Below are positions 3,977-24,923 of a DNA stretch of 64,000 nt, piece by piece. A program made the position numbers and the translations under genes. Position 1 is the first letter of the stretch; each line of letters starts with the position of its first letter. The stretch is from the NCBI GenBank assembly GCA_009699865.1, contig WLNJ01000001.1, forward strand, positions 62,001 through 126,000. Reading direction: 5' to 3'. Under the pieces are notes generated by a model. It did not search any database. It had not been told where the DNA came from and saw only the letters and a list, made by a program, of their open reading frames with translations. Origin of the DNA: Actinomycetota bacterium (GTDB lineage Bacteria > Actinomycetota > Thermoleophilia > Solirubrobacterales > Solirubrobacteraceae).

Positions 3977-4017
3977 CCCATTGCTGTTGCATTGCGTCAG
4001 ACCGTCGGACTCTCCGG

Positions 4018-4023
4018 TAGCGT
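4018..4023 (+). promoter_or_regulatory. candidate internal leaderless -10 box before the first flippase
   Basis: GG-TAGCGT lies 7 bases before an in-frame TTG at 4031. It matches the box and spacing found at other unit starts and is the reason 4031 is preferred as the flippase start. A TTG leaderless start is unusual, so confidence is low. Confidence 0.35.
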
Positions 4024-4030
4024 CACGACC

Positions 4031-5452: not shown

Positions 5453-6999
5453 CTCCGCTTCAGATACACGTCTAGAAGAGTCACCCCGCTCGACTTGCCG
5501 GCAAGATTCGGCTCGGGCGCAGCGGTGATGCCGGCCTCATAACGAACGACGGGCGCTCCCGTTGCTTCGAGAGCCGAGATGATCTCACGCTGGACTCGCT
5601 CGCTTGTAACAACGCCCGGGGCAGCAATGTCGTACCTAGTCACATTCTCACGCCCGGCGAGAACGTAGAAAAGAGGGGCGCCGGCCGTGACGAGGTCGGA
5701 TCTACGTGAGGCCACATAGATCGGACCTGGGGGTAATCTGCGAACGGCGCCCACTGCCGACTCGAGATCCGAAAGCAGACACATCTGAACCGGCTCTCCT
5801 CGGAGGGAGCAGCGGGTGCGAGGAAGCTCCCGAACTCCATCGGCGACTTGCAGGTTGATTCTCCGAGCGTGCTGGGCTTCCCGTACCTCCCGCTCGCGCT
5901 TCCAGACTGTGTCCGCAAGGCTCCAGCCAAGGCCTGCTAGGGCCCCAAGTGCTGCAAGTCCGGCGAGAGCCTTGCGCCATCCACCAGCTGCTGGTGACAC
6001 CTTCCAAGGGCGACTCCTGCGTGAGTCCACGACCGCTGAAATCGCCCAAGCACCCAGAACCGCATCCATCACCGCTAGCGGACCCGTATGGAAGGCGTCG
6101 GCGCGCACAACAAGGTAGTGCGCCATTCCAAAGCCAAAGACAAAGGTCGTGGCCTCAATCCAACGACCTTTCCTCTGCGTCAGCAGAAGGGCCGTACCGC
6201 TGGCCGCGAGAGTCAACAAGAGCGATAGAGGAAGGTGGTACGAGAGGAACTGGGCGACTAGGTCAAGCCCCTGCGCATTCCCACCCCCATCCCACACGAG
6301 TGGAAATGGAAGCGTCTGGTACTTGCTGAACTCAAGGACGGGATACCGGATCAGCAGATCCCACGAGTTACCCGCGCCAGCCGCAGCGACAAGGGGAACA
6401 TAAATGGCCGCAGCGGCTGCCAAAGCCGAGCCGACATATTGCAGCAGGGTCCGTCGGATTCCGCCTCGCAGCACTAGCCCGATCACAGACCCCAGCGCGA
6501 GATATGCCGCAAACTCAATCCTCCAGACCGAAACAAGTCCTGTGAAGACACCGGCGAGCCACGGCCGCTTCTCAAGCTGAAGAAGCGCTCCAAGGGCAAA
6601 CATGAGGGCAACCGGATACGGGTGAGGGCCAGTGGCAGAGCTGACCGCAAAGATTGAAACAGCCCAGGCCAGAAGGGCCGGCCATCGCCCGGCCCTTCTT
6701 CCCGCCAAACGCCACGCGAGAAGGGCGACCGTTGCATCCACAACCGCACGAATGACGCGCCAGGGAACGAGCGATGCCCCGGTCAGCTTCCACGCTGCTC
6801 CAAGAAGATAGACCTGTCCCGGCGGGTAGAACCACCAGAAGTCCCGGTAGGGAACTTGCCCTGCTGCTATTCGAGACGCAGCCTGCAGCATCAGGCCCTC
6901 GTCGTTGAGCTGGATCCAATCCTTCAAGGTCAGGAAGCCAATTCCAAGACCGATCAGCCAGAGGCACGCCCCGGGGGCTGCCTTCCTCAAGCGGCTCAT
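5365..6999 (-). CDS. GT-C-type integral membrane glycosyltransferase-like protein
   Basis: This protein of about 544 residues has roughly 10-11 membrane segments. After the first segment comes an acidic external loop, QLNDEGLMLQAASRIAAGQ, followed by VPYRDFWWFYPPGQVYLLG. This layout resembles the first periplasmic loop of GT-C enzymes (ArnT/PMT group), where a D/E is catalytic. The C-terminal 150 residues are soluble (PIYVASRRSDLVTAG). GT-C enzymes use polyprenyl-phosphate sugars outside the membrane; the sugar and acceptor here are unknown. The start is placed at the ATG forming a 4-base ATGA overlap with the upstream gene; an ATG three codons earlier (7008) is possible. Its 3' end overlaps the flippase gene by 88 bases. 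Confidence 0.72.
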   Translation of the reverse strand: MSRLRKAAPGACLWLIGLGIGFLTLKDWIQLNDEGLMLQAASRIAAGQVPYRDFWWFYPPGQVYLLGAAWKLTGASLVPWRVIRAVVDATVALLAWRLAGRRAGRWPALLAWAVSIFAVSSATGPHPYPVALMFALGALLQLEKRPWLAGVFTGLVSVWRIEFAAYLALGSVIGLVLRGGIRRTLLQYVGSALAAAAAIYVPLVAAAGAGNSWDLLIRYPVLEFSKYQTLPFPLVWDGGGNAQGLDLVAQFLSYHLPLSLLLTLAASGTALLLTQRKGRWIEATTFVFGFGMAHYLVVRADAFHTGPLAVMDAVLGAWAISAVVDSRRSRPWKVSPAAGGWRKALAGLAALGALAGLGWSLADTVWKREREVREAQHARRINLQVADGVRELPRTRCSLRGEPVQMCLLSDLESAVGAVRRLPPGPIYVASRRSDLVTAGAPLFYVLAGRENVTRYDIAAPGVVTSERVQREIISALEATGAPVVRYEAGITAAPEPNLAGKSSGVTLLDVYLKRSYRELARFGTWVVLLPKPPTAATSASATK

Positions 7000-8576
7000 G
7001 ATTTCCAACCCTTCAGCTCATAAACCCTTGCGCAGCCGTAGTTGGCTCGCTGGAGAAGCCTGGAACCCAGCACGTGGGTCAAATCAGACTGGTGGCCACA
7101 GTCGGAGTAGAGAAACCTCGCCCCACTCGAGTCAATCAGGCGCCGTGCAGATGAGAGGGACATCTGCCCTCGGAACAGCTTCTCCGCGGCCGCAACACGC
7201 GCTCGGAAGTCCGGGGTCCATGAGAGTTCCCCAACCCAGACAGGACGGCCGGTATGCGCCGGCACTGACAGCGCAGCTTTGATCGGTGCCAACACTCCCC
7301 CCGATCCCGGCTTGGAGGCAATTGCTTTCAGTGCCGCGTCTTCCCCCGGTTCGAGGAAGTAGGGCTGTGCTGAGCGGTGGATCTCGAGCCTCATCAGATT
7401 GAGACGGTGGACAGTTCCTGGGACACACATGATCAGACAGAGTCCCACCCCGAGCGGAAGTCTCGCCCGCCACCACTCCGCGTCCTTCAGAAGGAGCATC
7501 CCTTCGACGGCCAGGATGCCAAGGAAGAGGCTTATCCCCTGGACGGCGTGGAACGGAAAGGTGCCCGCATGGCTGAGTCCCACAAAGGCAAACTCTCCGA
7601 CCATCAGTAGCGGAACAACGCGCAGAGCCAGCGACTGCCAGTCAGATGGGCGCCGGCCGTACGCCCTGATGGCCGGAAGCCAAGGAAGCAACGTCAACGC
7701 CCAGACACCAAGGGACCAAAGGGGGACCCTGTTGTTGGCCTCAGCGGCTATCGCCCAGACATCTTCAGTCCCTGACAGCCATCGGTAGTAGATCAGCGGC
7801 GCCAGGGCGGCTAGTAGGAATGGGAGTCGCCGACGCAACAACGCCATACGGCCAAGCCCAACATCCGCCATAGCTAGGTCGCAGATCAGGACTGCGCCAA
7901 CAAGCTCTGCTCCTTGCCATGGCTGAAGCCACGAGCACAGAAAGGCCGTACCGCAGAGAAGAATTCCAGTCACCGCCGCGGAGTCGGGTCGAGTTGCCCG
8001 TTGGGCAAGCAGTAAGCCGATCACCATCAGCGCTACGGCAATGCCAGTCATCATGTACCCCCACATCCATGACGGGGCGAAGACCTCTCCGGCTGCGAAT
8101 TCAAGCTGCCCCCGAAAGCCACCAACCAACCGGTTCCAACTCCAGATCGCGCCAGCTGGACTGAGGCCGAACAGAGCAAGGGCTAATGCGGCTGTTCTCG
8201 CACCACCCTTTGGCAGCAACTCTCGGACATATGCCGCAAAGGCGGCCACCACAAGTGGGATTGCCAGAAGCTTCCAGAGCTGATAACTGAGTACAACATC
8301 AACGCCCGCACGATTCAAAAGGCCGGAGATCAGGAACCCAGGGTGGAAAAAAGCGCTGGACTGTTGAGCCGGTATCGACCACAGACTCCTGATTGAGAGG
8401 TGTTCCCCGGAGGAAACAACCCACGAGAGGTACTGGAGTTGGTCCGCTCCTACCTGGCTCTCCGCTCCAGTCAATATCCGACCTCGGGACAGGAGGGCTG
8501 CCATAACGGCGACGCTCACGAAGGCGAATGCCGCTCCTAGGAGGATCTCCCCCTTTGATGCTTTGAGGGACCTCAC
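6996..8576 (-). CDS. GT-C-like membrane protein, paralogue A of the five-member 'DQLQYL' family
   Basis: This protein of about 526 residues is the most divergent of the copies in the polysaccharide locus. Shared motifs in order are VGADQLQYLSWV and HPGFLISGL in the first external loop, WLQPWQGAELVG mid-protein, FPFHAVQG, VPGTVHR, then a soluble C-terminal domain with GELSWTPDFRAR, SSGARFLYSDC and YGCARVYELK. It has about ten membrane segments. The acidic residue in the first external loop and the soluble tail suggest a GT-C glycosyltransferase, but I do not recognise a named family. The start is GTG at 8576, overlapping the stop of the upstream GT2 gene (GTGA); a start at 8624 is less likely. 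Confidence 0.7.
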   Translation of the reverse strand: MRSLKASKGEILLGAAFAFVSVAVMAALLSRGRILTGAESQVGADQLQYLSWVVSSGEHLSIRSLWSIPAQQSSAFFHPGFLISGLLNRAGVDVVLSYQLWKLLAIPLVVAAFAAYVRELLPKGGARTAALALALFGLSPAGAIWSWNRLVGGFRGQLEFAAGEVFAPSWMWGYMMTGIAVALMVIGLLLAQRATRPDSAAVTGILLCGTAFLCSWLQPWQGAELVGAVLICDLAMADVGLGRMALLRRRLPFLLAALAPLIYYRWLSGTEDVWAIAAEANNRVPLWSLGVWALTLLPWLPAIRAYGRRPSDWQSLALRVVPLLMVGEFAFVGLSHAGTFPFHAVQGISLFLGILAVEGMLLLKDAEWWRARLPLGVGLCLIMCVPGTVHRLNLMRLEIHRSAQPYFLEPGEDAALKAIASKPGSGGVLAPIKAALSVPAHTGRPVWVGELSWTPDFRARVAAAEKLFRGQMSLSSARRLIDSSGARFLYSDCGHQSDLTHVLGSRLLQRANYGCARVYELKGWKS

Positions 8577-9472
8577 GACTCTCGCTCCAGCTGTGCATCG
8601 CGCCGGCCAACGCTGAAAGCCCAAGCAGCCCGACTGGCCCAGATCCGCTCAGCAAGAAACTGCGGAGCGATCTCTGCGATGGGGCTAAGGGCTGTGGCAA
8701 CCGCGGCCTTACAGCGCCGAAGTGGGGTCATGGGTGCGTGAGGGGGCACTAGGTCTGGAGCAACACGCTCTAGCTCAACACTGGCCCGTCCGACCTCCCG
8801 CATCCGCTCAGCTGTCGTCCTCGGCGTGTCTGACCGCAGGTGCCAAACCTCAGCCGACGGGTCGTGCTGAAGGCGCATCCCCACCGCATCGAGTCTAGAC
8901 GCGAGCTCAACATCCGTGAACCTTCTAAGCCGCTCATCAAAGGGTCCCGATACTCGACTCAGGAGTTCCCTTTTGACGCTTACATTTGCAGTGCAGAAGT
9001 GCTCTGGTGGTACCTCACCGTGATCGCCGATCGTGTCGAAGGCAAACAGTGGACCCCCCGTCTCAAGCCACCTCATATGGCGGGTGATGCGCTTGCGGGG
9101 ATCCCACAAGACTGGGCCACCCAGAGCCTCCTCAACTAACGGAAACTGCTCGTGAAAGAGCATGTGTTTAGCGACTAGGTCCGGAGTGACGACGATGTCG
9201 TCATCGATAAACAGGACTAGCGTCCCGCTCGCGGTCCCAAGCGCCGCGTTCCGGGCCGTACTGGAACCCGACCCGCTCCCCGGCACCGAAACCACCCTCA
9301 CTTGGGGAAAATCAGCCAGGACAGAGGGAGTGCCGTCCGTGGAGGAATCGTCCGCTACGAGAACCTCGTCTTGGTCAAAATCAACCTGCCCAACGACCGC
9401 CGTCAGGCACTCCCGCAGATCAGTGGCCCGGTTGTGGGTGGGAATGACGACTGAGAGGCGGGTTGTCCCCAT
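8573..9472 (-). CDS. GT2 family glycosyltransferase
   Basis: This is a 299-residue GT-A fold transferase. LSVVIPTHNRATDL opens the nucleotide-binding half, VADDSSTDGT follows, and LVLFIDDDIVVTPDL around residues 90-104 is the metal-binding DxD site. HFCTANVSVKRELLSRVSGPFDERLRRFTDVELASRL is the acceptor-side ED-type motif region of the family. It has no membrane segment and so is cytoplasmic or membrane-peripheral. It starts on the base after the stop of the upstream GT2 gene and overlaps the next gene by 4 bases. The donor sugar is not predictable. Confidence 0.85.
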   Translation of the reverse strand: MGTTRLSVVIPTHNRATDLRECLTAVVGQVDFDQDEVLVADDSSTDGTPSVLADFPQVRVVSVPGSGSGSSTARNAALGTASGTLVLFIDDDIVVTPDLVAKHMLFHEQFPLVEEALGGPVLWDPRKRITRHMRWLETGGPLFAFDTIGDHGEVPPEHFCTANVSVKRELLSRVSGPFDERLRRFTDVELASRLDAVGMRLQHDPSAEVWHLRSDTPRTTAERMREVGRASVELERVAPDLVPPHAPMTPLRRCKAAVATALSPIAEIAPQFLAERIWASRAAWAFSVGRRDAQLERES

Positions 9473-10531: not shown

Positions 10532-12034
10532 ATGCAGGAGGACCGCTTTGAGTTTCCCCGGAATGAACTGAGGTCTCGCGCTGCGCGAGGCGCCATCATC
10601 AACGGCCTGTTCCTGCTGGCCGTGGAGTCGCTCGGACTCGTTCAAGCCGTGGTTGTTGCCCGGTTACTGAATGCTGACGAAGTTGGTCTCTACGGAATCG
10701 TCTCGGTAACTGTCATCACCCTGCTTGCCCTCAAGCAAGTCGGAATAGATGAGGCCTATGTTCAACAGGATGGCGACGATCAGGAGGCTGCCTTCCAGCA
10801 TGCGTTCAGCCTAGACCTCGCGCTCTCTGTGGGCTTTGCGATTCTCGTTGCCGCGCTTGCCCCAGTGATTGGACTTATCTACGGGGATTTCAGCCTCACC
10901 CCCCTCATGCTCGCACTGTCCCTGCTGCCGATCCTGTTCGCGATGCAAGCGCCCGCGTGGGTCTTTCTTAGGCGCATGGACTTCGTTCGCCAGAGGAGCC
11001 TGCAGGCGGTGGTGCCTGTGGTAACGCTCGGGGTCACCGTTGGTCTCATCATCAGTGGAATGGGAACTTGGGGACTGGTCATTGGTGCGCTTGCTGGCAA
11101 CGCCGCAGCGGCTGGAATGGCATTCAAGCTCAGCCCGTACAAGCTTGCTTGGCGGTACGACTCCCAGACAGCTCGGCGCTATCTCCACTTCAGTGCCCCG
11201 ATCTTCCTAGCGGCGATCTGTGGCCTCCTCATCCGACAGGGCCAAACCCTTGCCTTCGAGACCAAGCTCGGCCTCGCGGGGGCCGGCTATCTGACGCTTG
11301 CAATAACGCTCACCCGCTACGCAGATAGAGCGGACCAAATGATCACTCAAACCATCTACCCCGCGATCTGCGCAATCACGGACAAGCCCGAACGGTTGGC
11401 GGAGGTGTTCGAGAAGAGCAACCGCCTAACGGCAATGTGGGCACTTCCCTTTGGGGCTGGTCTCGCACTCTTCGCGGACGACCTCGTCCGCTTTGTACTG
11501 GGGGATAAATGGCGCCCTGCCATTGCCCTGATCCAGATCATGGGCGTCTCGACAGCGATCTATCAGCTTGGGTTCAACTGGACCGCGTTCTATAGGGCAC
11601 TAGGCCGCACCCGCCCGCAAACCGTCTACGCAATCACCGGGCTCGTCGTATTCGCAGCGGTTCCAATTCCACTCCTTTTTACTCACGGTGCCACAGCTTT
11701 TGCTTGGGGACTCTTCGCCGTTAATCTCGTCGCTGGCTTCCTCAGATGGATCTACATGAGGCAGCTTCTCCCGGGTGTTCGGATCGCACGGTTTGTCCTC
11801 AGAGCACTTATCCCACCTCTGATCGCCGCAGTACCGATTCTCCTCTGGCGAGAGCAGTTCACTGCTGAGGGCGGCGTCAGCACCTTTGCGCTCCAGCTCC
11901 TCCTCTTCGCAACCACCTACCTGCTGTGCACCGCTGCTATGGAGAGAGTCCTTCTGAGAGAGGCCGTGAGCTACCTGCGGCGGCGCTCGGACTCGAGCGG
12001 GCCCGGCAGTCCAACTCCGACAGTGGTGGTCTGA
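10532..12034 (+). CDS. lipopolysaccharide/teichuronic-type flippase (PST family, WzxC-like)
   Basis: This is a 500-residue polytopic protein. Its start resembles the PST branch of polysaccharide exporters (WzxC/TuaB): GAIINGLFLLAVESLGLVQAVVVARLLNADEVGLYGI, with the basic N-terminus RSRAARG. It shows about 14 hydrophobic segments, KSNRLTAMWALPFGAGLALFADDLVRFVLGDKW late in the protein, and a basic cytoplasmic C-terminus. It belongs to a different branch from the flippase at 4031, so the locus may export two glycans or glycan intermediates. A glycosyltransferase gene follows after 2 bases. Confidence 0.85.
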   Translation: MQEDRFEFPRNELRSRAARGAIINGLFLLAVESLGLVQAVVVARLLNADEVGLYGIVSVTVITLLALKQVGIDEAYVQQDGDDQEAAFQHAFSLDLALSVGFAILVAALAPVIGLIYGDFSLTPLMLALSLLPILFAMQAPAWVFLRRMDFVRQRSLQAVVPVVTLGVTVGLIISGMGTWGLVIGALAGNAAAAGMAFKLSPYKLAWRYDSQTARRYLHFSAPIFLAAICGLLIRQGQTLAFETKLGLAGAGYLTLAITLTRYADRADQMITQTIYPAICAITDKPERLAEVFEKSNRLTAMWALPFGAGLALFADDLVRFVLGDKWRPAIALIQIMGVSTAIYQLGFNWTAFYRALGRTRPQTVYAITGLVVFAAVPIPLLFTHGATAFAWGLFAVNLVAGFLRWIYMRQLLPGVRIARFVLRALIPPLIAAVPILLWREQFTAEGGVSTFALQLLLFATTYLLCTAAMERVLLREAVSYLRRRSDSSGPGSPTPTVVV

Positions 12035-13232: not shown

Positions 13233-14852
13233 CTACTTAAGAACGTAGACCGTCGCGCACCCAAAGCGATGCTCTGAAGCGAGCAGAGGACCGAGGGCAG
13301 TGGCAAGAGACGGAAGCGTCCCGGTTAGGCCAGTGCAGTTCACGAAGATGTACCTAGCCCCGGTCGAACGAACCACCTGCTGGGTAGCGGCCGGCGGATA
13401 GACACCCAGGAAGACTGCCGCAGCAAGATTCGCACGCTCCTGCCAGTCAGGCGACCAAGATCTCGGACCCACATAGGCCTCCTGGCCGCTGTAGGCGGGC
13501 ACAAGCATTCCTCCATAAGGGTCTGCCAGAACCTTCCCGCGAGGGGCAGCATCGAGAAACCTCAAAGCCTCCTGCTCGGACGGAGAGATGTAATACGGGA
13601 AATAGCCCTTATCAACGTTGTCTGAGGCCATCCTCATCCGATGGACCGTCCCGGGGACTGACAGGGCTAGAACCACTGGGACAACCCACCACCAGCGAGG
13701 GCGCGGCAGCCAGGCCGGACGACCACTCCCAAAGCATTGGACGGCTAGAACTGCCAGGGGAAGCGCGAGTCCTTGAAAAGAGTGATAGGGAAAAGTGCCG
13801 AAAGGCTGAAGATAAACCACCAAAACGGCAACCGGCCAGAATCGCACTGCGATCTCTTGCCACCCGTCAGCCCTCTTGTGGAGGGAGATCAGCGCCGGGA
13901 TGGCGAGCGGCGCCACGGTCAGTGCGATGGCCCAGAGTGGCCAGTCCCAGTGAGCCTGGGCTCCCCGCTTGTTCATCTCACCAGCCAACTTCCATGATGG
14001 GTCTCTCGCTGCCACAGCCGCGTAATAGATAGCCGGGATCAGGCCGGCAGTCACGACCCAGAAAAGCCGAAGATCCGGTCGCGTGTCCCTCCTCCACCAC
14101 CGGAAGCCCTCTACCAGGAGGACGATCCCGATTAACTCGGCTCCCTGCCATGGCTGAAGCCAAGTAACTAAGAGGGCCCCTGCTGACGCAAGCGCGATGC
14201 GGGCGGCACCTTCGGCCTCTCGGGCCCGCTCAATCAGCAGAAGCACTAGCGGCAGGAGAAACACTGCAATAGCACCGAACTCGTACCCCATCAGCAACTG
14301 CCCCGTCCACATCTCAGATGAGATGAAGTCAAGGCTGTAACGGACTGAGTCGCCAGCTCCAATCCAGTTGGCCAACGTGCTCCAGCCCATCAGGGTAAAG
14401 AGGGCCAAAAGCATTGCGGTTCGCTGAGCCCAAGGTCCAACTATCAAGCGCCGACAGTACTGCCGTATGCCGAAGAAGACAACAATCACAGCAATGGGTT
14501 TCCAGACCGCCGTATACGCCTCAGGGAGCGGAACCCCAAGCCCTCGATGGAGCCATCCGGAGATCAAGTAACCCGGGTGGAGAAACACCCTGTGGTCTGG
14601 CCTAAAGTCGAACAGGTTCCCGACCAGCCAATGGTCCCCCGCGTCCCGTACCCAGGCGAGGTACTGAAGCTGATCGACTGTGAAAAGACCATCACCACCA
14701 CTCAGGTGCCTTCCGGTCAGCAGCAACGGCAACATCACCATCATCGAGAGCGCTCCCGTAGCGAGAAGAAAGACGCCGTCAAACCAGTCGAACCGTCGGG
14801 CTGATCCGCCGGCAGGAGCCGGTTTCTTTGGATCGTCCACCATGGCGCTCAC
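13233..14852 (-). CDS. GT-C-like membrane protein, paralogue B of the five-member family
   Basis: This is a 539-residue polytopic protein, the third and last of three tandem paralogues behind the methyltransferase-GT2 gene. Conserved blocks are FTVDQLQYLAWVRDAGDHWL, HRVFLHPGYLISGW, WLQPWQGAELIG, FPYHSFQG, VPGTVHRMR, and a soluble tail with YPYY-type FPYYISPSEQEALRFL, SWSPDWQERA, STGARYIFVNC and FGCATVYVLK. The GTG start overlaps the stop of paralogue C (GTGA). About ten membrane segments and an acidic first external loop fit a GT-C fold. The activity is inferred, not shown. Confidence 0.72.
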   Translation of the reverse strand: MSAMVDDPKKPAPAGGSARRFDWFDGVFLLATGALSMMVMLPLLLTGRHLSGGDGLFTVDQLQYLAWVRDAGDHWLVGNLFDFRPDHRVFLHPGYLISGWLHRGLGVPLPEAYTAVWKPIAVIVVFFGIRQYCRRLIVGPWAQRTAMLLALFTLMGWSTLANWIGAGDSVRYSLDFISSEMWTGQLLMGYEFGAIAVFLLPLVLLLIERAREAEGAARIALASAGALLVTWLQPWQGAELIGIVLLVEGFRWWRRDTRPDLRLFWVVTAGLIPAIYYAAVAARDPSWKLAGEMNKRGAQAHWDWPLWAIALTVAPLAIPALISLHKRADGWQEIAVRFWPVAVLVVYLQPFGTFPYHSFQGLALPLAVLAVQCFGSGRPAWLPRPRWWWVVPVVLALSVPGTVHRMRMASDNVDKGYFPYYISPSEQEALRFLDAAPRGKVLADPYGGMLVPAYSGQEAYVGPRSWSPDWQERANLAAAVFLGVYPPAATQQVVRSTGARYIFVNCTGLTGTLPSLATALGPLLASEHRFGCATVYVLK

Positions 14853-16555
14853 CTGACGATTGGCTTTCCTACCCGGGCAGAGACCCGGTCAGATCTCCCC
14901 GTGGGTTTCAGAACGTAGACCCGCGCACAACCGAACGTATGCACCGATTGCACGAGTTGACCAAGTTCGTGGGACAGCGAAAGCGGCGGCTCTACACGAC
15001 CCTGACACTCCTGAAATACATATCTTGCCCCCGTCGACTTAACGAACCGCTGGGCGTATCTAGGCCGTAGCTGATCACCAAAGAAGGCTCCCGTTACGCG
15101 CGCCCTGAGCTCCCACGATGGCGTCCAAGAGAACGGCCCGAGGTACACCTCCCTGCCTGCATAGGGAGCCACAAGAAGGCCCCCGTACGAAGATGCCAAG
15201 ACAGCTCCCGGTCGGTTGTCACGCTCAAGCCAGGATAGGGCAGCCTCCTCGCCGGAAAAGATGTAATACGGGTAGGCGACATTGTGGATGTTGTTGCGGA
15301 CCAAGCGGACTTTGTGAGCCGTCCCAGGGATGATGAACAGGGCCAAGACTGGGACAACCCAGATCCAGTGTGGTTTAGGAACCCACTTCGGCCGGTGGAC
15401 CGTAAGGCCTTGAACCGCAAGGATCCCCAGTGGAAGTGTTAGCCCCTGAACCGAGTGGTAGGGGAAGGTCCCAAAAGGCTGGAAGAAAACAGCCAGTACG
15501 GCAAATGGCCAGACCCGCACGGCAACCTGCTGCCAATCGTCAGCACGACGGCCCAGTCCGAGTGCCGCCGGGATCAGAAGTGGAAGAAGAGTTATTGCCA
15601 CCATCCAAAGAGGCCACTCCCAGAGTGGCTGCGCTCCCGCCGCATTGGCCTTGCCGGCAAGCTCCCATGAGGAGTCAGTTGCAGACAAAACCGCGTAGTA
15701 CACCGCCGGCAAGCCACTGACTACAAGCACAGGAGTAAGGCGCCAGGCAATGGGCTCCTTATCTCGAACCCTGCGCCAAAGCTCTACGGCCACGATGATC
15801 AGGATCAGCTCTGCTCCTTGCCACGGCTGGAGCCACATCACCCAAGCCCCACCAGCCGCGCACGCGGTCAGGAGCGCTCGGTGTCCACCTTGCCTCCCCC
15901 TCTCTACACCAAGCAAGACCAACGGCATAGCAAATACGGCAACCGCGGTCATCATGTACCCGAGCAGGGTCTGGACTGTCCAGAGCTCCCCAGATATGAA
16001 GTCAAGCTGGTACTGACCCGGAGCACCACCCCATCCTGTCGTCTTTGCAAGCCCACTCCAAGGCATCACAACGAAAAGGGCAATAACAAGCCCGACCCTC
16101 GCAGGCCAGCCCCTAGGAAGCAGCCTACGTGTGTACTTCAGGCAGCCAACGAAGGCAACCGCAACAGCAAGCGGCTTCCATACGGCAATAAACGAGACGG
16201 CAAGTGATGCTCCCAGCCAGCGGTGGACTATTCCGGACAGCAGAAACCCCGGGTGGAGGAAGACCCGATGGTCGGTCCTCATGTCGAACTCGTTTCCAAT
16301 CAGCCAGTGATCCCCGGCCTCACGAATCCAAGTCAGGTACTGCATCTGATCTGGGGGGAACAGGCCATCTGCCCCGCTGAGCATCCGGCCCTTGAGAAGC
16401 AAGGGGGCAAGGACAACCATTGACAGGAGTGTGAGCAGGGCGAGGCACAGCCAGTCAAACCAGTCGAGACTCAAATACCGGTTCGCGATCAGCGGGTGGG
16501 CTCCCGCGTCCGTTATCTCGGGACTCACCGAGCCACTCTTACGGTCAGCCTCCAT
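14849..16555 (-). CDS. GT-C-like membrane protein, paralogue C of the five-member family
   Basis: This is a 568-residue protein. It carries LDWFDW just before the first membrane segment (also in paralogue D), FPPDQMQYLTWIREAGDHWL, HRVFLHPGFLLSG, WLQPWQGAELI, PAVYYAVLSATDSSWELAGK, FPYHSVQG, IPGTAHK, and the C-terminal YPYYIFSGEEAAL, GPFSWTPSWELRAR, STGARYVFQEC, FGCARVYVLK. The end of paralogue D overlaps its start by 11 bases. It is nearly collinear with paralogues B and D, so recent local duplication is likely. Differences cluster in the middle membrane segments, which may set donor or acceptor choice. Confidence 0.74.
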   Translation of the reverse strand: MEADRKSGSVSPEITDAGAHPLIANRYLSLDWFDWLCLALLTLLSMVVLAPLLLKGRMLSGADGLFPPDQMQYLTWIREAGDHWLIGNEFDMRTDHRVFLHPGFLLSGIVHRWLGASLAVSFIAVWKPLAVAVAFVGCLKYTRRLLPRGWPARVGLVIALFVVMPWSGLAKTTGWGGAPGQYQLDFISGELWTVQTLLGYMMTAVAVFAMPLVLLGVERGRQGGHRALLTACAAGGAWVMWLQPWQGAELILIIVAVELWRRVRDKEPIAWRLTPVLVVSGLPAVYYAVLSATDSSWELAGKANAAGAQPLWEWPLWMVAITLLPLLIPAALGLGRRADDWQQVAVRVWPFAVLAVFFQPFGTFPYHSVQGLTLPLGILAVQGLTVHRPKWVPKPHWIWVVPVLALFIIPGTAHKVRLVRNNIHNVAYPYYIFSGEEAALSWLERDNRPGAVLASSYGGLLVAPYAGREVYLGPFSWTPSWELRARVTGAFFGDQLRPRYAQRFVKSTGARYVFQECQGRVEPPLSLSHELGQLVQSVHTFGCARVYVLKPTGRSDRVSARVGKPIVR

Positions 16556-18242
16556 CAGGCCCTCCCAGCTCGGACGAGACGCGGTCAGACTTGGCGGACC
16601 GCTTCAGCACATAGACGCGCGCGCAGCCAAAATCATGGGTGCTGAGAATGATCGGTCCCAGCTCCCTGCCCAGCGACGTGGCCGGCTGGGCATTGCCATG
16701 GCAGGCTTGGAAGATGAACCTTGCTCCCGTTGATTCCACTGCTGCCTGAGCTGCGGCAGGGCTCATAAAATTCCCAAAGATTGCTCCGACTGGCAGTGCC
16801 CTCTGAAAGTAGTTCGGTGTCCAAGAGAATGGTCCCATGAGCGCCTCTCGCCCAGTGTAGGCGGGGATTAACAGCCCTCCATATTCATCAGTCATGACAC
16901 CGCCTGGCTGAGGGTCAACCTCAAGAAAGCGCAGTGCCCGCTTCTCGCCTGGAGCGATGTAATACGGGTAGGCAACCTTGTTGATTTGGTTGTACGCGCT
17001 CCACATCTTGTGGATCGTCCCTGGGACTGAAAGAAAGAGCAGGACTGGCACAACCCACCAAAACGCTGGTCGGGGAACCCAGCGGGGACGGTAGGAAGTC
17101 ATGCCCTGCGCCGCCAATACGCCGATAGGGAACATTAGGCCTTGTGCTGAATGGAACGGGAAGGTCCCGAATGGCTGCAGAAAGACAATCAGGGCTGCCA
17201 GTGGCCAGAACCTAACTGCCGCCTGCCCCCAACTCAAGTCCTTGCGCCTCAACGCGAATAGAGCAGGAATACCCAAGGGCGCGAGGGTGAGGAGAACCAC
17301 CCACCAAGGCCAGCCCCAGAGTGGACTTCCGTCAGCTTGGTTCACCTCACCAGCCAACTTCCATGCTGCATCCGTCTTAGACAGGAGTGCGTAGTAGACC
17401 GCTGGGATGGCCCCGGCCACAAATAGCCAGAGCAATCCAATGTCGATGGACTTTCCGTAACGCCAACGCCGGAACACCTCCACAAAGCCGATGATCAAGA
17501 GTGTCTCCCCTCCCTGCCAAGGCTGGAGCCACATCACAAGCCCCGAGCCAAGCGACAGCAGGACCAGCAGGCGGGTACTACCGTCACCAGAGCTGCGCTT
17601 GGCCACCCCGAGGAGCACGAACACCATCAGGGCGATTGCTATCGCCGTCATGGAATAGCCCTGCAATGGCTGCACGGTCCAAATCTCGCCGGACATGAAG
17701 TCCAGCTTCAGGCCCCAGATGTAGTTGTTACGTCGATTTCCAATGTCGAAGAACTTCACCAGCCCGCTCCATGGCATAACAGCGAACAGCACAATGAAGA
17801 TGGCCCCTCTGCGAGCCCAAGTCCCAACGACAAGGTGCCTGACCCAACAGAGGGCCGCAGCGAAAGTGAGCACTGCGGCAACTGGTTTCCAGAGGGCAGC
17901 GTAGGCGGCCTGGATTGGAACACCCAACCGGAATAAGAGTCCCGAGATTAGAAAGCCGGGATGCAGAAAGACGCGTGAATCAGGGGAGAAGTCCCAGCGG
18001 TTACCGATCAGCCCGTGATTACCCGCCTCTCTAATCCAGGTCAGGTACTGCAACTGGTCGAGGGCTACAGGACTTTCACCCCCACTCCAGGTCCTCCCTT
18101 TGAGCAGCAGCGGCACCACGATCGCGAATGAGGCGACGACTACACCTGCAAACGCACTCCAGTCGAACCAGTCAAGTCCGAGCTCCCTCCGCTGCCGAGG
18201 GGTGCTCAAGGACGGTCCAGCATCAGCGGGCAGCGCGCTCAT
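16545..18242 (-). CDS. GT-C-like membrane protein, paralogue D of the five-member family
   Basis: This 565-residue protein is the first of three tandem paralogues, 24 bases downstream of the methyltransferase-GT2 fusion gene. Blocks: LDWFDW, VALDQLQYLTWIREAGNHGL (about residues 60-79), HPGFLISGL, WLQPWQGGETLL, PAVYYALLSKTDAAWKLAGE, FPFHSAQG, VPGTIHK, YPYYIAPGEKRALRFL, GPFSWTPNYFQRA, STGARFIFQAC, FGCARVYVLK. It has one variation in an otherwise fixed block: QGGE instead of QGAE. As a GT-C-like protein it would use lipid-phosphate sugars, and the gene upstream looks able to make such a donor. That link is inference from position and fold. Confidence 0.74.
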   Translation of the reverse strand: MSALPADAGPSLSTPRQRRELGLDWFDWSAFAGVVVASFAIVVPLLLKGRTWSGGESPVALDQLQYLTWIREAGNHGLIGNRWDFSPDSRVFLHPGFLISGLLFRLGVPIQAAYAALWKPVAAVLTFAAALCWVRHLVVGTWARRGAIFIVLFAVMPWSGLVKFFDIGNRRNNYIWGLKLDFMSGEIWTVQPLQGYSMTAIAIALMVFVLLGVAKRSSGDGSTRLLVLLSLGSGLVMWLQPWQGGETLLIIGFVEVFRRWRYGKSIDIGLLWLFVAGAIPAVYYALLSKTDAAWKLAGEVNQADGSPLWGWPWWVVLLTLAPLGIPALFALRRKDLSWGQAAVRFWPLAALIVFLQPFGTFPFHSAQGLMFPIGVLAAQGMTSYRPRWVPRPAFWWVVPVLLFLSVPGTIHKMWSAYNQINKVAYPYYIAPGEKRALRFLEVDPQPGGVMTDEYGGLLIPAYTGREALMGPFSWTPNYFQRALPVGAIFGNFMSPAAAQAAVESTGARFIFQACHGNAQPATSLGRELGPIILSTHDFGCARVYVLKRSAKSDRVSSELGGPDGG

Positions 18243-18266: not shown

Positions 18267-19982
18267 TTAGGACCTTGAGGCCGGGTCGCTCAGACGCTCG
18301 GCGCGAAGCTTCGCTGCTGGCGGCCGGAGCACAGCCCAGTCACGCTTGCGTTCGTCCCGCCGGAAGCGGTAAAGAACGCGAAGTGTCTTAAGCCCGTACT
18401 TGACGCTCGTCCGGAAGGAGACACTTGAGGCCTCAAGGAAGTAGCGGGTCGGGATGGCGATCTCAACAACTCGGGCGCCACTGGCAGTGAGCTGGGCGAA
18501 GATCTCCTGGTCGAACACAAACTCATCATCGTTTCGCAGGAAAGCAATCTTGTTGAGGCAGTCCACTGAGAAGGCTCTGTATCCAGTGTGGTATTCAGAG
18601 TAGTCGCGCCGGAAGGCTGTGTTCTCGCACCAAGTTAGAAACTTGTTGCCCACCCACTTCCATCGCGGCATGCCACCAGAGATCGCCCGATCGTCGAGCA
18701 TCCGTGACCCAATCACGCAATCTGCGCGGCCCTCAGCAATTGGTTGGACCATCTCAGCCAACAGAGAAGGGTCGTACTGGTTGTCAGCGTGGACCATGAC
18801 GACGACATCAGCACCATCAAGGGCTGCTCGGCTGTAGCAAGTCTTCTGGTTGGCTCCATAGCCCCTGTTCTTCGGATGGCGGAGGACATCAAAGCCCTCA
18901 TCGAGAGCCACTTGCACCGTGTCGTCCGGGCCATGGTCGTCAACGACAAGACCTCGGTCGGCCTTATCTGCTGGGATCTCCTTGGCTACAAGGGGAAGGG
19001 TCTTGGCGGCGTTATATGCCGGAAGGACGACATGAACCTTGAGGTCTCCCCCACGATCCGTCATCAGGGGCTTGCCGGTCACTTGGACGGCAACATTGTG
19101 GGCCAGGATGACGACCTCGTCTCCCAATGGAAGCGAGACCATCCGGCGTCCAAGTGGCGACTTTCCGATCGGTCGCAGGATCGAGAACGGGAAGCCACGA
19201 TCCGCAAGTCCGTTGATCCAGTATGAGAAAGCGAATGTCCTGACAAGATCCTTGTTCTCGCTGATCACGAGCCCCGTAGCGCTGAGAAGCTCAGCCAAGG
19301 TCAGGCGTGGCAGGAGGAATGTGTGTGCTGGCACGAAGCCCCACCAGTTGCCACGAGCAAGGCGTGCTAGACGCGCTGATGGGTCCGGTGTGACGATGCA
19401 GAGCACTCCTCCTGGAGCCAGCAGGCGCTTGCAGTGATCAATAGCGCTGACTGGGTCGGTCAGATGCTCAATCACATCAGCAAGTACGACAACATCAAAT
19501 CCTTGTTCGTCCAGAAAGTCTTCGAGGCCTACTTCACGGACATCGAGACCAAGTTCGTCCCGTGCATGGGCCGCGTTGGCTGAGCTGAGCTCAAGACCCA
19601 TCGTGTCGTAGCCGGCCTTCTTGGCCTGGTCGAGCAGGAGACCATGGCCACAGCCAACATCGAGAAGTCGTCCACCCGGCTTGTACTTAGCAATCATGTC
19701 CAGGAGTCTGTCCCCGGTTGCCCGACGCCCAGCCTCCTCGTCCAGATACGACGTGTCGGTCATGTCCCGGTAGAGGTCATGCAGGTCGCCGCCCGCGGGA
19801 AGTGATGGCTGAATCACAGTGCCGCAGTCTCTGCACCGGAAGAGATCGCAGTAGATCCGTGACTCGTGATTCGACGGAGCCATGGCTGCCGATCCGGCTA
19901 CATCGATCGTCCCCGGGTAGGCGAGATCGGCGGTACCGCCGCAGATGCGGCAGTCAGTGGTCTTCGTTGTCTCCTCAGGCAT
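18267..19982 (-). CDS. fusion of a zinc-ribbon class I SAM methyltransferase and a DPM1-like GT2
   Basis: This protein of about 571 residues has three parts. Residues 10-60 hold two CxxC pairs (CRIC and CRDC), a zinc-ribbon seen in C-methyltransferases of sugar pathways. Residues 70-280 are a Rossmann methyltransferase with LLDVGCGHGLLLDQA as the SAM motif and VVVLADVIEHLTDP. Residues 310-540 are a GT2 domain of the dolichyl-phosphate-mannose-synthase type: VVLPAYNAAKTL, LVVDDHGPDDT, VVMVHADNQYDPSLL as the metal site, and TGYRAFS. The expected product is a polyprenyl-phosphate sugar, perhaps methylated. I prefer ATG 19982, which follows a TACTCT box, over TTG 20012. Confidence 0.8.
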   Translation of the reverse strand: MPEETTKTTDCRICGGTADLAYPGTIDVAGSAAMAPSNHESRIYCDLFRCRDCGTVIQPSLPAGGDLHDLYRDMTDTSYLDEEAGRRATGDRLLDMIAKYKPGGRLLDVGCGHGLLLDQAKKAGYDTMGLELSSANAAHARDELGLDVREVGLEDFLDEQGFDVVVLADVIEHLTDPVSAIDHCKRLLAPGGVLCIVTPDPSARLARLARGNWWGFVPAHTFLLPRLTLAELLSATGLVISENKDLVRTFAFSYWINGLADRGFPFSILRPIGKSPLGRRMVSLPLGDEVVILAHNVAVQVTGKPLMTDRGGDLKVHVVLPAYNAAKTLPLVAKEIPADKADRGLVVDDHGPDDTVQVALDEGFDVLRHPKNRGYGANQKTCYSRAALDGADVVVMVHADNQYDPSLLAEMVQPIAEGRADCVIGSRMLDDRAISGGMPRWKWVGNKFLTWCENTAFRRDYSEYHTGYRAFSVDCLNKIAFLRNDDEFVFDQEIFAQLTASGARVVEIAIPTRYFLEASSVSFRTSVKYGLKTLRVLYRFRRDERKRDWAVLRPPAAKLRAERLSDPASRS

Positions 19983-19991
19983 CGAGCCGAA

Positions 19992-19997
19992 AGAGTA
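19992..19997 (-). promoter_or_regulatory. candidate -10 box of the methyltransferase-GT2/paralogue operon
   Basis: TACTCT on the minus strand is 9 bases before ATG 19982. If real, it leads the operon of the fusion gene and paralogues D, C and B, and it excludes the longer TTG start at 20012. Confidence 0.4.
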
Positions 19998-20049
19998 GCC
20001 GTCTGAGCGCAACCGCGTGTCACCTGCAGCACAACTCCCCCCGGAGGCC

Positions 20050-20055
20050 TACCAT
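20050..20055 (+). promoter_or_regulatory. candidate leaderless -10 box of the ALG5-like GT2 gene
   Basis: TACCAT sits 7 bases before GTG 20063. The identical TACCAT-N7-GTG layout precedes trpF at 59803. Confidence 0.5.
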
Positions 20056-20062
20056 CGCCTCT

Positions 20063-20872
20063 GTGAGCAATCCCCCAATCGAGATCTCAGTTGTCATCCC
20101 CGCTTACTGCGAAGAGCTCGGAATCGCGGCGACCATCTCAGCCATTCACGACACCTTCGAGGCCGAAGGCTGCGGATTTGAGATCATCGTTGTTGACAAC
20201 GCGTCTACTGATCAAACCGTTGCCAAAGTTGAGGAGCTGCACCTCCCAACTGTCCGCGTACTGATCAACGAGATCAACCGGGGCAAGGGCATGTCAGTGC
20301 GGCGGGGCATGCTTGAGGCCAGCGGAAAGCTGCGCCTTCACTGTGACGCCGACTGCGCCCCGTCTCTCGCAAGTCTGCCGAAGATGCGCGACCTGATCAC
20401 CGCCGGAGCGGACGTGGTTGTCGGCTCGAGGCTTGGACCCGGAGCCGACATTGGGAAGAAGCAGCCGCTACTTCGACGGATCGCAGGATCGTCATTCCAG
20501 ACTCTCTGCCGGGTAATCCTCAGGGAACCAACTCGAGACCGATTCTGTGGCTTCAAGCTCTGGACAGGGACCGCCGCCGCCGATGTGTTCAGCAACATCG
20601 TGCTCGACGGTTGGACCTTCGACGCCGAGGCCCTCTCCTTGGCGAGGCGTTTGGGTTACGGAGTTGTCGAGACCGGGATCGTCTGGGCCGACCGTGAAGG
20701 GTCGCGGCTCTCAATGCTGAAAGTCCTGATCCCAGTTACGCGGGAACTCTTGGTTGCCCGACGCAATGTCAACCGAGTTGCTTCAGGCAGACGCAAAGAA
20801 ATCGTGGATCGACTCAGCCAGCCAGTCGATCATGCCCCGGCTGAGCCCAGGGTGACACCCAACCCAGACTGA
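20063..20872 (+). CDS. GT2 polyprenyl-phosphate sugar synthase-like (ALG5/dolichyl-phosphate glucosyltransferase type)
   Basis: This 269-residue enzyme begins ISVVIPAYCEELGIAATISAI, followed by IVVDNASTDQTVAKVEEL, the glycine-rich NRGKGMSVRRGMLEASG, and LRLHCDADCAPSLASL with the DxD metal site. RDRFCGFKLWTG and GWTFDAEALSLARRLGYGV are strongly typical of ALG5-like transferases, which attach glucose or a related sugar to polyprenyl phosphate. It lacks C-terminal membrane segments. GTG 20063 is chosen because the domain begins there and a TACCAT box lies 7 bases upstream; longer in-frame starts run into the divergent fusion gene. Its last 90 bases overlap the convergent dehydrase gene. Confidence 0.84.
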   Translation: MSNPPIEISVVIPAYCEELGIAATISAIHDTFEAEGCGFEIIVVDNASTDQTVAKVEELHLPTVRVLINEINRGKGMSVRRGMLEASGKLRLHCDADCAPSLASLPKMRDLITAGADVVVGSRLGPGADIGKKQPLLRRIAGSSFQTLCRVILREPTRDRFCGFKLWTGTAAADVFSNIVLDGWTFDAEALSLARRLGYGVVETGIVWADREGSRLSMLKVLIPVTRELLVARRNVNRVASGRRKEIVDRLSQPVDHAPAEPRVTPNPD

Positions 20873-22111
20873 GCCGTCTGTCACAAGGTCGGCGCCTTCT
20901 AGGCTTCCGCTCACACGATGCCCAAGCGGAAGATAGGCCGGCTGGCGAGTCATGTTGCCTGCGAGAAGGAGACGTGAGTCGATTTTGCGCTCCTCAAGGA
21001 ACATCTGCAGCTCCTTCCGCTTCGCCGAGTCTCCATCACGCAGAGTGAACGGGTAACCAAACCACGACGGGTCCGCCCCGGAAATCATCCGCGGAAGTAC
21101 GAGCACATCCTCCAAATCCCGCATCAGGCCATCCAGATACGCAAAGTTCTCGCGTCTCGCCTCATGGAATCCATCCACTCGCTCCAGCTGAGCCACACCG
21201 AGAGCTGCCTGCATGTCGGTGACCTTGAAGTTGAACCCGAGATGGCTGAACACATACTTGTGGTCGTAATCGACGGGCATCTCGCCGTACTGACCATCAA
21301 AGCGATGACCACAGGCATTGTTGACGCCAGGTGGGCAGTAACAGTCCCGTCCCCACTCGCGCAGCGAAGCCACTGCTCGAGTCCAGCCCGGGTCTTCGGT
21401 GCCGACAGCCCCTCCCTCACCCGTTGTCATGTGATGAGCCGGGTAGAACGAATAGGTGGAGGCCTGTCCAAATGTTCCAACTCGCCTTCCCGCAAACTCG
21501 CTGCCGAGCGCGTCGCAGCAATCCTCGATCAGATGCAGGCCGCGGTCCTTACACAGTGCCTCGATTGCAACACCATCAAACGGGTTACCAAGGCAGTGCG
21601 CTGCAACGATGGCCCTAGTCTTGGGACCAATAGCAGCCTCGAACATCTCAACCGTGGGATTGAGCGTGTCTACCTCAACATCAATGTAGACCGGTACGAG
21701 GCCCTGCTGATAGATCGGGTTGACTGTGGTGGGGAACCCAACCGCAGGCGTAATCACCTCATCCCCAGGCTCGAGGGGTCGCTCAATCAGATGGCTGCGC
21801 AATGCACTGATGGCAAGCAGATTGGCCTGTGAACCCGATCCAACAATTACATTGGCGGGCCGCTTGGTGGCTTTGGGTAGATGCGCTCTGAACCGCTCGG
21901 CCCATTGACCCTCCGTTAGCCAGGCGTCAAGAACTGCGCTAACAGCGTTCTCGAGCTCGGCCGGTCCAATGACCTTCTCCCCAACGCTGACAGTCGTCTC
22001 TCCCGGTACAAAGTCTCGCGGTACGAAACGGGCCTCCGCATATGCGCGGGTGGCATCCAATGCCGCTGCACGTAGGACCTGAAGTTCGTGGCTCTCACTG
22101 GAAGTGCTCAT
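20783..22111 (-). CDS. E1-type CDP-4-dehydro-6-deoxyglucose 3-dehydrase (RfbH/DdhC-like, DegT/DnrJ fold)
   Basis: This is a 442-residue PLP enzyme of the DegT/DnrJ/EryC1 fold. In SFYPAHHMTTGEGGAV, His226 stands where aminotransferases have the PLP lysine; this is the hallmark of the E1 dehydrase that removes the C3 hydroxyl in 3,6-dideoxyhexose synthesis. The cysteines fit the E1 [2Fe-2S] pattern exactly: C199-X57-C257-X-C259-X7-C267. The enzyme therefore probably dehydrates a nucleotide-linked 4-keto-6-deoxy sugar. The partner reductase E3 and the CDP-glucose 4,6-dehydratase are not in this window. A TAGGAT box is 9 bases before the ATG. Confidence 0.88.
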   Translation of the reverse strand: MSTSSESHELQVLRAAALDATRAYAEARFVPRDFVPGETTVSVGEKVIGPAELENAVSAVLDAWLTEGQWAERFRAHLPKATKRPANVIVGSGSQANLLAISALRSHLIERPLEPGDEVITPAVGFPTTVNPIYQQGLVPVYIDVEVDTLNPTVEMFEAAIGPKTRAIVAAHCLGNPFDGVAIEALCKDRGLHLIEDCCDALGSEFAGRRVGTFGQASTYSFYPAHHMTTGEGGAVGTEDPGWTRAVASLREWGRDCYCPPGVNNACGHRFDGQYGEMPVDYDHKYVFSHLGFNFKVTDMQAALGVAQLERVDGFHEARRENFAYLDGLMRDLEDVLVLPRMISGADPSWFGYPFTLRDGDSAKRKELQMFLEERKIDSRLLLAGNMTRQPAYLPLGHRVSGSLEGADLVTDGSVWVGCHPGLSRGMIDWLAESIHDFFASA

Positions 22112-23337: not shown

Positions 23338-23443
23338 CCCATTTTGTCTGGCTCCTCAGAGCTGGAACGGTACAGCGCACCGGTACTGCCTACTTGGAAA
23401 TGGAAAGATTTGGCAAACATGTGGCACATATCCGCTTGTCGGC

Positions 23444-23452
23444 TGTAATACT
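23444..23452 (+). promoter_or_regulatory. candidate extended -10 element of the first hydrolase gene
   Basis: TGT-AATACT (TGn plus a -10-like hexamer) ends 7 bases before the ATG at 23460. This again suggests a leaderless or nearly leaderless transcript. The hexamer departs from TANNNT at its first base. Confidence 0.35.
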
Positions 23453-23459
23453 CGGCCCC

Positions 23460-24863: not shown

Positions 24864-24923
24864 AAGTCTCGTAAATCAGCGCGAAGGAGCGCAACCTTCA
24901 GACCGCTTAGTGGTTCGAAGGGT

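What the first reader, a model, noticed from the sequence alone, without database searches (positions are those of the whole stretch)
18267..20872. Divergent pair of polyprenyl-phosphate sugar synthases placed to feed the GT-C-like proteins
The DPM1-like domain of the fusion gene leads the operon of paralogues D, C and B. The ALG5-like GT2 is divergently transcribed 80 bases away. These two enzyme types make lipid-phosphate sugars, the known donors of GT-C enzymes. The arrangement is a complete candidate module: donor synthesis on the inner side, transfer on the outer side.
Basis: partly seen in the sequence, partly recalled or inferred. Interest (0 to 1): 0.62.

Follow-up and report, generated by a model that had tools for sequence, protein, structure and literature searches.

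The report
Paired lipid-sugar makers feeding membrane glycosyltransferases
Two back-to-back bacterial genes very probably load sugars onto a membrane lipid so that matching membrane enzymes can attach them to a surface polysaccharide, and one loader is fused to a methyl-adding enzyme, so it may load an altered sugar.

Summary
FUSION (18267-19982, minus) and ALG5L (20063-20872, plus) are divergent, 80 bp apart; FUSION leads an operon of GT-C paralogues D, C and B. Both GT2 domains have Pyrococcus DPMS as closest solved relative; three other window GT2s do not. An AlphaFold model of paralogue D is clearly GT-C. Among 232 genomes of the order, the 18 with close paralogues all carry both synthases; 17 keep the pair head to head. 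A tree splits the paralogues into a clade beside FUSION (with B, C, D) and one beside ALG5L (with E, moved 26 kb away here). Where close paralogues are absent, FUSION is followed directly by other GT-C families (PMT_2, AftD) in 9 of 15 loci, which argues for a donor synthase rather than inherited gene order. Against: 19 of 39 genomes with any member of the wider GT-C family lack both synthases. Sugars, lipid and activity are unproven. Verdict: new variant of known multi-component transmembrane glycosylation systems.

The parts
18267..19982 (-). FUSION: bifunctional protein, N-terminal SAM methyltransferase with a Cys4 (probable zinc) region (about residues 8-300) plus C-terminal DPMS-like GT2 domain (about residues 312-550); proposed polyprenyl-phosphate sugar synthase for GT-C paralogues B, C, D
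   Evidence: Pfam; model pLDDT 87.3; PDB relatives; C11 C14 C50 C53 invariant in 16 of 16 aligned orthologues
19983..20062 (.). 80 bp divergent intergenic region; no sigma-70-like promoter found by a simple scan
   Evidence: (0 found, 0.2 expected)
20063..20872 (+). ALG5L: DPMS/ALG5-like GT2 without transmembrane helices; proposed polyprenyl-phosphate sugar synthase for GT-C paralogue E
16545..18242 (-). Paralogue D: GT-C membrane glycosyltransferase, first gene after FUSION
   Evidence: fold; FUSION-linked clade
14849..16555 (-). Paralogue C: GT-C, FUSION-linked clade
   Evidence: 51% identical to D
13233..14852 (-). Paralogue B: GT-C, FUSION-linked clade
   Evidence: 50% identical to D
47240..48871 (-). 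Paralogue E: GT-C of the ALG5L-linked clade; beside polA here, directly after ALG5L in other genera
   Evidence: tree (100/100)
6996..8624 (-). Paralogue A: GT-C family member outside both clades; donor unknown
   Evidence: tree
5365..7008 (-). Associated membrane protein, kept directly after the C-type paralogue in several relatives; GT-C-like by eye only, no Pfam family
10532..12034 (+). MOP/Wzx-like membrane protein: one of two candidate flippases (the other is 3992-5452); a Wzx-like gene follows FUSION in Svornostia and relatives
   Evidence: named by eye from the sequence and by comparison with the loci; function inferred
20783..22111 (-). RfbH-like enzyme, convergent with ALG5L and overlapping it by 90 bp; near the module in three genera, not in the g14 loci; possible link to a deoxysugar donor
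   Evidence: NCBIfam PRK15407 561 bits over cut-off 423

Best explanation
This is a two-armed transmembrane glycosylation module inside a Wzx/Wzy-like surface polysaccharide locus. On the cytoplasmic side ALG5L and the GT2 half of FUSION each move a sugar from a nucleotide sugar to the phosphate of polyprenyl phosphate. The lipid-P-sugars are flipped, probably by a MOP/Wzx-type flippase. On the outer side the GT-C paralogues take the sugar from the lipid and add it to the polysaccharide: B, C and D use the FUSION product, E uses the ALG5L product. Shown: gene order, co-inheritance, family and predicted fold of the parts, and the one-clade-per-synthase split. Inferred: lipid acceptor, sugars, flippase, acceptor glycan, and that the methyltransferase half of FUSION acts on the same sugar.
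For: Closest solved relative of both GT2s is P. furiosus DPMS (ALG5L profile 7.1e-23, then ArnC 6e-13 and GtrB 7e-13; FUSION-GT2 profile 1.1e-7; FUSION model Z 21.9, then ArnC 20.9, GtrB 20.5). Three other window GT2s match chondroitin synthase or PglI best and EpsD/MftF models. DPMS residues kept: ALG5L has the equivalents of D91, R117, R131 and E12; FUSION those of D91, Q93 and R117. GT-C fold: model of D pLDDT 91.4, Foldseek ranks 1-29 all GT-C enzymes, Z up to 18.0. Co-occurrence: all 18 genomes with close paralogues have both, against 3 (ALG5L) and 16 (FUSION) of the 214 others. Two clades, each tied to one synthase. FUSION directly followed by a PMT_2-type (8) or AftD-type (1) GT-C in 9 of 15 inspected genomes without close paralogues. 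ALG5L beside a YfhO-family protein in 2 of the 3 ALG5L genomes that lack FUSION; YfhO is a GT-C partner of a lipid-P-sugar synthase in PMC8035078 (passages).
Against: Curated synthase cut-offs are not reached. ALG5L has Ala and Gly where DPMS has Q93 and S135. For FUSION the soluble enzymes GpgS (Z 20.2) and MpgS (Z 19.7) lie close behind DPMS, and MpgS is second by sequence. No flippase shown; GtrA absent in 6 of 9 genomes tested. 19 of 39 genomes with any member of the wider GT-C family lack both synthases. G003 keeps ALG5L but no clade-E GT-C was found. FUSION in G189 has no membrane protein beside it. The Fisher test takes no account of phylogeny.
Confidence: 0.8

Rival explanations
1. The two GT2s are ordinary cytoplasmic glycosyltransferases that build the polysaccharide repeat unit on undecaprenyl pyrophosphate; they are next to the GT-Cs only because the whole polysaccharide locus is inherited together.
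For: The locus holds many GT1/GT2 genes and Wzx-like and Wzy-like genes that stay nearby; curated synthase cut-offs are not reached; GpgS and MpgS are near DPMS in fold space.
Against: Closest relatives are lipid-P-sugar synthases, unlike three other GT2s of the same locus. FUSION keeps a GT-C directly behind it even with no close paralogue and, in G015 and relatives, with no other polysaccharide gene recognised by eye nearby.
Confidence: 0.13
2. The GT-C paralogues are oligosaccharyltransferase-like: they transfer whole lipid-pyrophosphate-linked glycans, and the GT2s serve another purpose.
For: Best Foldseek and VIA matches of D are OST subunits (2.5e-7; Z 18.0).
Against: Monosaccharide-P enzymes score nearly as well (Pmt4 Z 17.8, AftA 17.0, DPY19 16.7, ArnT 15.0). 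The OST motif WWDYG (recalled) is absent from the consensus. Two synthase types are co-inherited with the clades.
Confidence: 0.07
3. Only ALG5L and E form a donor-transferase pair; FUSION mainly makes a methylated sugar used elsewhere, and D, C and B take another donor.
For: FUSION is wider than the close paralogues (34 against 18 genomes) and is followed by different GT-C families in different genera.
Against: Its neighbours are still GT-Cs in most loci; B, C, D and all seven FUSION-linked copies in the tree form one clade (100/99); in the window genus D or C follows FUSION directly.
Confidence: 0.12

Closest known systems
Multi-component (three-component) transmembrane glycosylation systems: GtrA/GtrB/Gtr, CsbB-GtcA-YfhO, the ribofuranose system with GT136
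   Same: GT-A synthase of a lipid-P-sugar, flippase, GT-C transferase (PMC8035078 and PMC11127046, passages read); synthase and GT-C genes adjacent here.
   Different: Two synthases share one divergent intergenic region, each with its own GT-C clade; one synthase is fused to a methyltransferase; the GT-C paralogues B, C and D match no Pfam family and no NCBIfam family but one weak CrcB hit for B at 0.019; no GtrA in three genomes of this genus.
P. furiosus dolichyl-phosphate mannose synthase (5mlz), ArnC, GtrB; ALG5
   Same: GT2 fold, metal Asp, phosphate-binding Arg.
   Different: No transmembrane helices seen in ALG5L or FUSION by a hydropathy count (relatives); Q93 and S135 equivalents changed in ALG5L; D89 equivalent is His in FUSION; sugar unknown. 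The ALG5 resemblance itself is recalled.
Nucleotide-deoxysugar 3-C-methyltransferases MtmC, TcaB9, KijD1
   Same: Best fold match of FUSION's first half (Z 24.2, 239 residues, 2.6 A); among PDB hits only KijD1 and TcaB9 align through the N-terminal Cys region (1.1e-9 and 4.9e-9); four invariant Cys.
   Different: Their C-terminal domain is missing and a GT2 domain stands in its place; the Pfam models of that family (PF08421, PF08484, recalled) are not listed; generic methyltransferases score better by sequence (3e-14).
Mycobacterial Ppm1/PpgS with GT-C lipoglycan enzymes
   Same: Polyprenyl-P-sugar synthase feeding GT-C enzymes in an actinobacterium (start of the abstract of PMC3485146); PpgS model 57.4 bits on FUSION.
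   Different: Ppm1's fusion partner is not a methyltransferase (recalled); no such divergent pair is known to me there (recalled).

Membership tests
Polyprenyl-phosphate glycosyl synthase (DPMS/GtrB/ArnC type GT2) | GT-A fold, GT2 domain | tested here: met
   PF00535 63.1 and 84.6 bits; FUSION GT2 model Z 21.9 to DPMS; ALG5L by sequence only
Polyprenyl-phosphate glycosyl synthase (DPMS/GtrB/ArnC type GT2) | Closest known sequences are lipid-P synthases rather than other GT2s | tested here: met
   controls 27-29 and 76 differ
Polyprenyl-phosphate glycosyl synthase (DPMS/GtrB/ArnC type GT2) | Metal residues D91 and Q93, phosphate residues R117, R131, S135 of DPMS | tested here: inconclusive
   ALG5L keeps D91, R117, R131 and not Q93, S135; FUSION keeps D91, Q93, R117, rest not aligned
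Polyprenyl-phosphate glycosyl synthase (DPMS/GtrB/ArnC type GT2) | Curated equivalog cut-off (AglJ, PpgS, dolichyl-P hexose transferase) | tested here: not met
   86 of 325, 57.4 of 370, 55.6 of 375 bits; these models are narrow, so this excludes those equivalogs, not the wider type
Polyprenyl-phosphate glycosyl synthase (DPMS/GtrB/ArnC type GT2) | Transfers sugar to polyprenyl phosphate | not testable with these tools
   needs enzyme assay
GT-C glycosyltransferase | GT-C membrane fold | tested here: met
   AlphaFold model of D, pLDDT 91.4, pTM 0.92; Foldseek ranks 1-29 all GT-C; VIA Z 18.0, 461 residues, 5.7 A
GT-C glycosyltransferase | Invariant acidic residue in the first outer loop | tested here: met
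   D62, after the first long helices of the model, invariant in 23 of 23 rows; its catalytic role and outer location are inferred
GT-C glycosyltransferase | Uses a lipid-linked donor | not testable with these tools
   needs assay
Multi-component transmembrane glycosylation system | Lipid-P-sugar synthase and GT-C encoded together and co-inherited | tested here: met
   18 of 18 genomes; clades; partner exchange
Multi-component transmembrane glycosylation system | Flippase (GtrA, SMR, MATE or Wzx type) | tested here: inconclusive
   GtrA absent in 6 of 9 genomes; MOP/Wzx-like genes present but unassigned
Oligosaccharyltransferase (Stt3/AglB/PglB) | WWDYG-type motif (recalled) | tested here: not met
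   not in the A2 consensus
Nucleotide-sugar C-methyltransferase (MtmC/TcaB9/KijD1) | SAM methyltransferase core with N-terminal Cys4 region | tested here: met
   zinc itself not testable
Nucleotide-sugar C-methyltransferase (MtmC/TcaB9/KijD1) | C-terminal domain and Pfam models of the family | tested here: not met
   alignment ends near residue 285 of about 405; the models are not among the families listed for 16 members (25 of 29 families shown)

The most novel reading that the evidence does not exclude
FUSION is a self-contained maker of a methylated lipid-linked sugar: its first half C-methylates a 4-keto-deoxysugar nucleotide (a neighbouring RfbH-type enzyme would supply such sugars), its second half moves the branched sugar to polyprenyl phosphate, and GT-C enzymes of several unrelated families then place it on the outer surface. 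This would be a branched-sugar glycosylation pathway, and the paralogues would found new GT-C families.
Probability: 0.3. Interest if true: 0.72.

Novelty: new variant of a known kind. Interest (0 to 1): 0.5.

Why it matters
Two paper searches that paired Solirubrobacter or Solirubrobacterales with glycosyltransferase terms listed no study of such an envelope pathway (listings only, 15 of 1,479 and 10 of 260 hits shown). If right, the module gives a ready test of which GT-C uses which lipid-sugar, because each synthase has its own GT-C clade, and FUSION occurs with several GT-C families, so one can ask what decides donor choice. A methyltransferase fused to a lipid-sugar synthase would also couple sugar editing to lipid charging. 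A named strain with a complete chromosome carries it: Svornostia abyssi J379.

Tried and rejected
Oligosaccharyltransferase reading of the paralogues: best fold hits are OSTs, but monosaccharide-P GT-Cs are almost tied and the OST motif is absent. GtrA flippase: none in three genomes of this genus. CDP-sugar supply: CDP-glucose dehydratase and cytidylyltransferase models reach cut-off in 5 of 8 and 4 of 8 genomes, but not in the three of this genus, where an adjacent below-cut-off pair exists (G000:C17); inconclusive. Promoter scan of the intergenic region: nothing. A2 profile against PDB sequences: no hit. FUSION outside the order: E <= 1e-90 in 2 of 396 genomes drawn from the phylum, both in the own family. 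Outer paralogues: 22 loci (L108-L129) searched with both GT2 profiles; 7 have any GT2 hit within the flanks, the best being L111 (104 bits) and L112 (72 bits); so the outer family is mostly not linked to these synthases. Papers: searches found nothing for GT-C/GT2 actinobacterial lipid sugars, Svornostia abyssi, or a methyltransferase-GT2 fusion; the library holds open-licence papers only.

Rows dropped before counts: of 25 genomes with ALG5L at E <= 1e-30, 4 were dropped (32-36% identity, far below the 55% group). Of 81 with FUSION at E <= 1e-45, 47 with single-domain matches were dropped; 32 full-length plus 2 split over contigs were kept. G023 (601.6 bits) was left out of the 18 close-paralogue genomes because the tree puts its copies outside both clades; 11 of the 18 are in that tree, the other 7 were placed by bit score (626 or more). 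G205 was not inspected among the 16 FUSION genomes without close paralogues. My gene calls in relatives are home-made.
Full report
What is there. The window (60% GC) lies in a 1.7 Mb assembly (69 contigs, 91.96% complete) whose relatives are mostly titled Solirubrobacterales or Actinobacteria. FUSION (18267-19982, minus) and ALG5L (20063-20872, plus) start 80 bp apart in opposite directions. FUSION is followed by D, C and B with a 24 bp gap and 11 and 4 bp overlaps. FUSION is a methyltransferase followed by a GT2 domain; ALG5L is a single GT2 domain. Five family members lie in the window (A to E), two more elsewhere in the genome.

What the GT2 domains are. ALG5L and FUSION-GT2 both have P. 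furiosus dolichyl-phosphate mannose synthase as closest solved sequence (single: 7.5e-14 and 1.1e-4; profiles: 7.1e-23 and 1.1e-7). For ALG5L the next are ArnC and GtrB. As controls, GT2s at 8573, 9473 and 29329 match chondroitin synthase or PglI best and EpsD or MftF models. In the DPMS paper (PMC5526996, passages) D91 and Q93 hold the metal and R117, R131, S135 the lipid phosphate. By my reading of the alignments ALG5L keeps D91 (D97), R117 (R123), R131 (R138) and E12 (E17), with Ala and Gly for Q93 and S135; FUSION keeps D91 (D400), Q93 (Q402), R117 (R427), and D89 is His398. No curated equivalog cut-off is met, so the sugar cannot be named. In the FUSION model DPMS leads (Z 21.9), with ArnC 20.9 and GtrB 20.5, but the soluble GpgS is at 20.2.

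What the paralogues are. B, C and D have no Pfam match and no useful NCBIfam match; the family profile has no PDB sequence match. The model of D (pLDDT 91.4, pTM 0.92) finds only GT-C enzymes at Foldseek ranks 1-29, some of them named only as translocon complexes that contain OST; by VIA the yeast OST subunit Z 18.0, Pmt4 17.8, AftA 17.0, DPY19 16.7, ArnT 15.0. D62 is invariant in 23 of 23 rows.

Co-inheritance. In the 232 genomes of the order that were searched (300 were asked for): 39 have some family member, 21 have ALG5L at 55% identity or more, 34 have FUSION (32 full length, 2 split over contigs). Eighteen have a close paralogue, and all 18 have both synthases; outside these, ALG5L occurs in 3 of 214 and FUSION in 16 of 214 (the Fisher values there ignore phylogeny). 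The pair is on one contig and divergent in 18 of 21, with 52-152 bp between in 17; G211 has 3147 bp; the other 3 (one genus) lack FUSION.

Each synthase has its own GT-C. In other genera a paralogue follows ALG5L directly (11 of the 17 head-to-head genomes by the coordinates) and another lies in FUSION's operon, after a GT4-like gene and in some a Wzx-like gene. The tree of 33 rows puts all seven FUSION-linked copies with window B, C and D (100/99) and all six ALG5L-linked copies with window E (100/100). So E at 47240-48871 is the ALG5L partner that moved away in this genus, and B, C, D are a local expansion of the FUSION partner. In G003 no E was found.

Partner exchange. Sixteen genomes have FUSION but no close paralogue; I inspected 15. 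The next gene on the same strand is a PMT_2-type GT-C in 8 (G006 and G034 above the Pfam cut-off, the other six 52-67% identical to the G006 protein, one of these scanned at 17.3 bits, below cut-off) and an AftD GT-C domain in G193 (1.2e-56). G028 has a PMT_2-like protein one gene further (25.6 bits, cut-off 26.1), G183 an unnamed 8-helix protein directly after, G109 and G113 a convergent 6- to 8-helix protein; in G104 the contig ends; G189 has none. In the genus without FUSION, ALG5L follows a YfhO-family protein in G224 (37.6 bits, cut-off 28.5) and its homologue in G225; none was seen in G060. YfhO is listed as the GT-C of a lipid-P-sugar system in PMC8035078 (passages). This is the strongest argument that the GT2s supply donors: the GT-C family changes while the arrangement stays.

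The methyltransferase half. Its best folds are MtmC (Z 24.2), TcaB9 (23.8) and KijD1 (23.4), nucleotide-deoxysugar C-methyltransferases. By sequence, generic methyltransferases score better (3e-14), but only KijD1 (1.1e-9) and TcaB9 (4.9e-9) align through the N-terminal Cys region, whose four Cys are invariant in 16 of 16. Their C-terminal domain is missing here and their Pfam models are not listed. Separate methyltransferase-like and GT2 genes lie side by side in G010, G022 and G026. I infer that FUSION methylates the sugar it loads; this is not shown.

Limits. The outer family is mostly not linked to these synthases: 19 of 39 genomes have neither, and 22 outer loci show GT2 hits in only 7. 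The flippase is unknown. Donor, lipid, linkage and acceptor are untested.

Verdict. It works like the multi-component transmembrane glycosylation systems; membership is met for synthase plus GT-C and open for the flippase. New are the two-armed divergent layout, the methyltransferase fusion and the unnamed GT-C family.

Noticed in passing
L092, L095, L103 (CAMDBT010000002, CAMCVN010000001, CAMCUD010000040): Three public records titled Bifidobacterium breve carry this Solirubrobacterales module; the titles look wrong.
   Followed up: no
window 47240-48871: Paralogue E sits beside polA in this genus although its orthologues follow ALG5L elsewhere: a relocation of about 26 kb.
   Followed up: yes
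window 5365-7008: A membrane protein without Pfam family, 44-53% identical in relatives that hold the module, kept near or right after the C-type paralogue; may be another GT-C.
   Followed up: partly
G227:C35, G228:C267, G212:C24: Methyltransferase-only relatives of FUSION's first half (50-56% identity) with a FUSION-like GT2 elsewhere in the genome: split or unfused forms.
   Followed up: partly
G000:C17:13719-15361: Adjacent relatives of CDP-glucose 4,6-dehydratase and glucose-1-phosphate cytidylyltransferase, both below cut-off.
   Followed up: no
L073 (G060:C10), 1-675: Next to ALG5L in G060 is what looks by eye like a second, GtrB-like GT2 with two membrane helices on the opposite strand.
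   Followed up: no
window 23319-26183: Two tandem secreted glycosyl-hydrolase-like paralogues (by eye) inside the polysaccharide locus, kept in the same genus.
   Followed up: no
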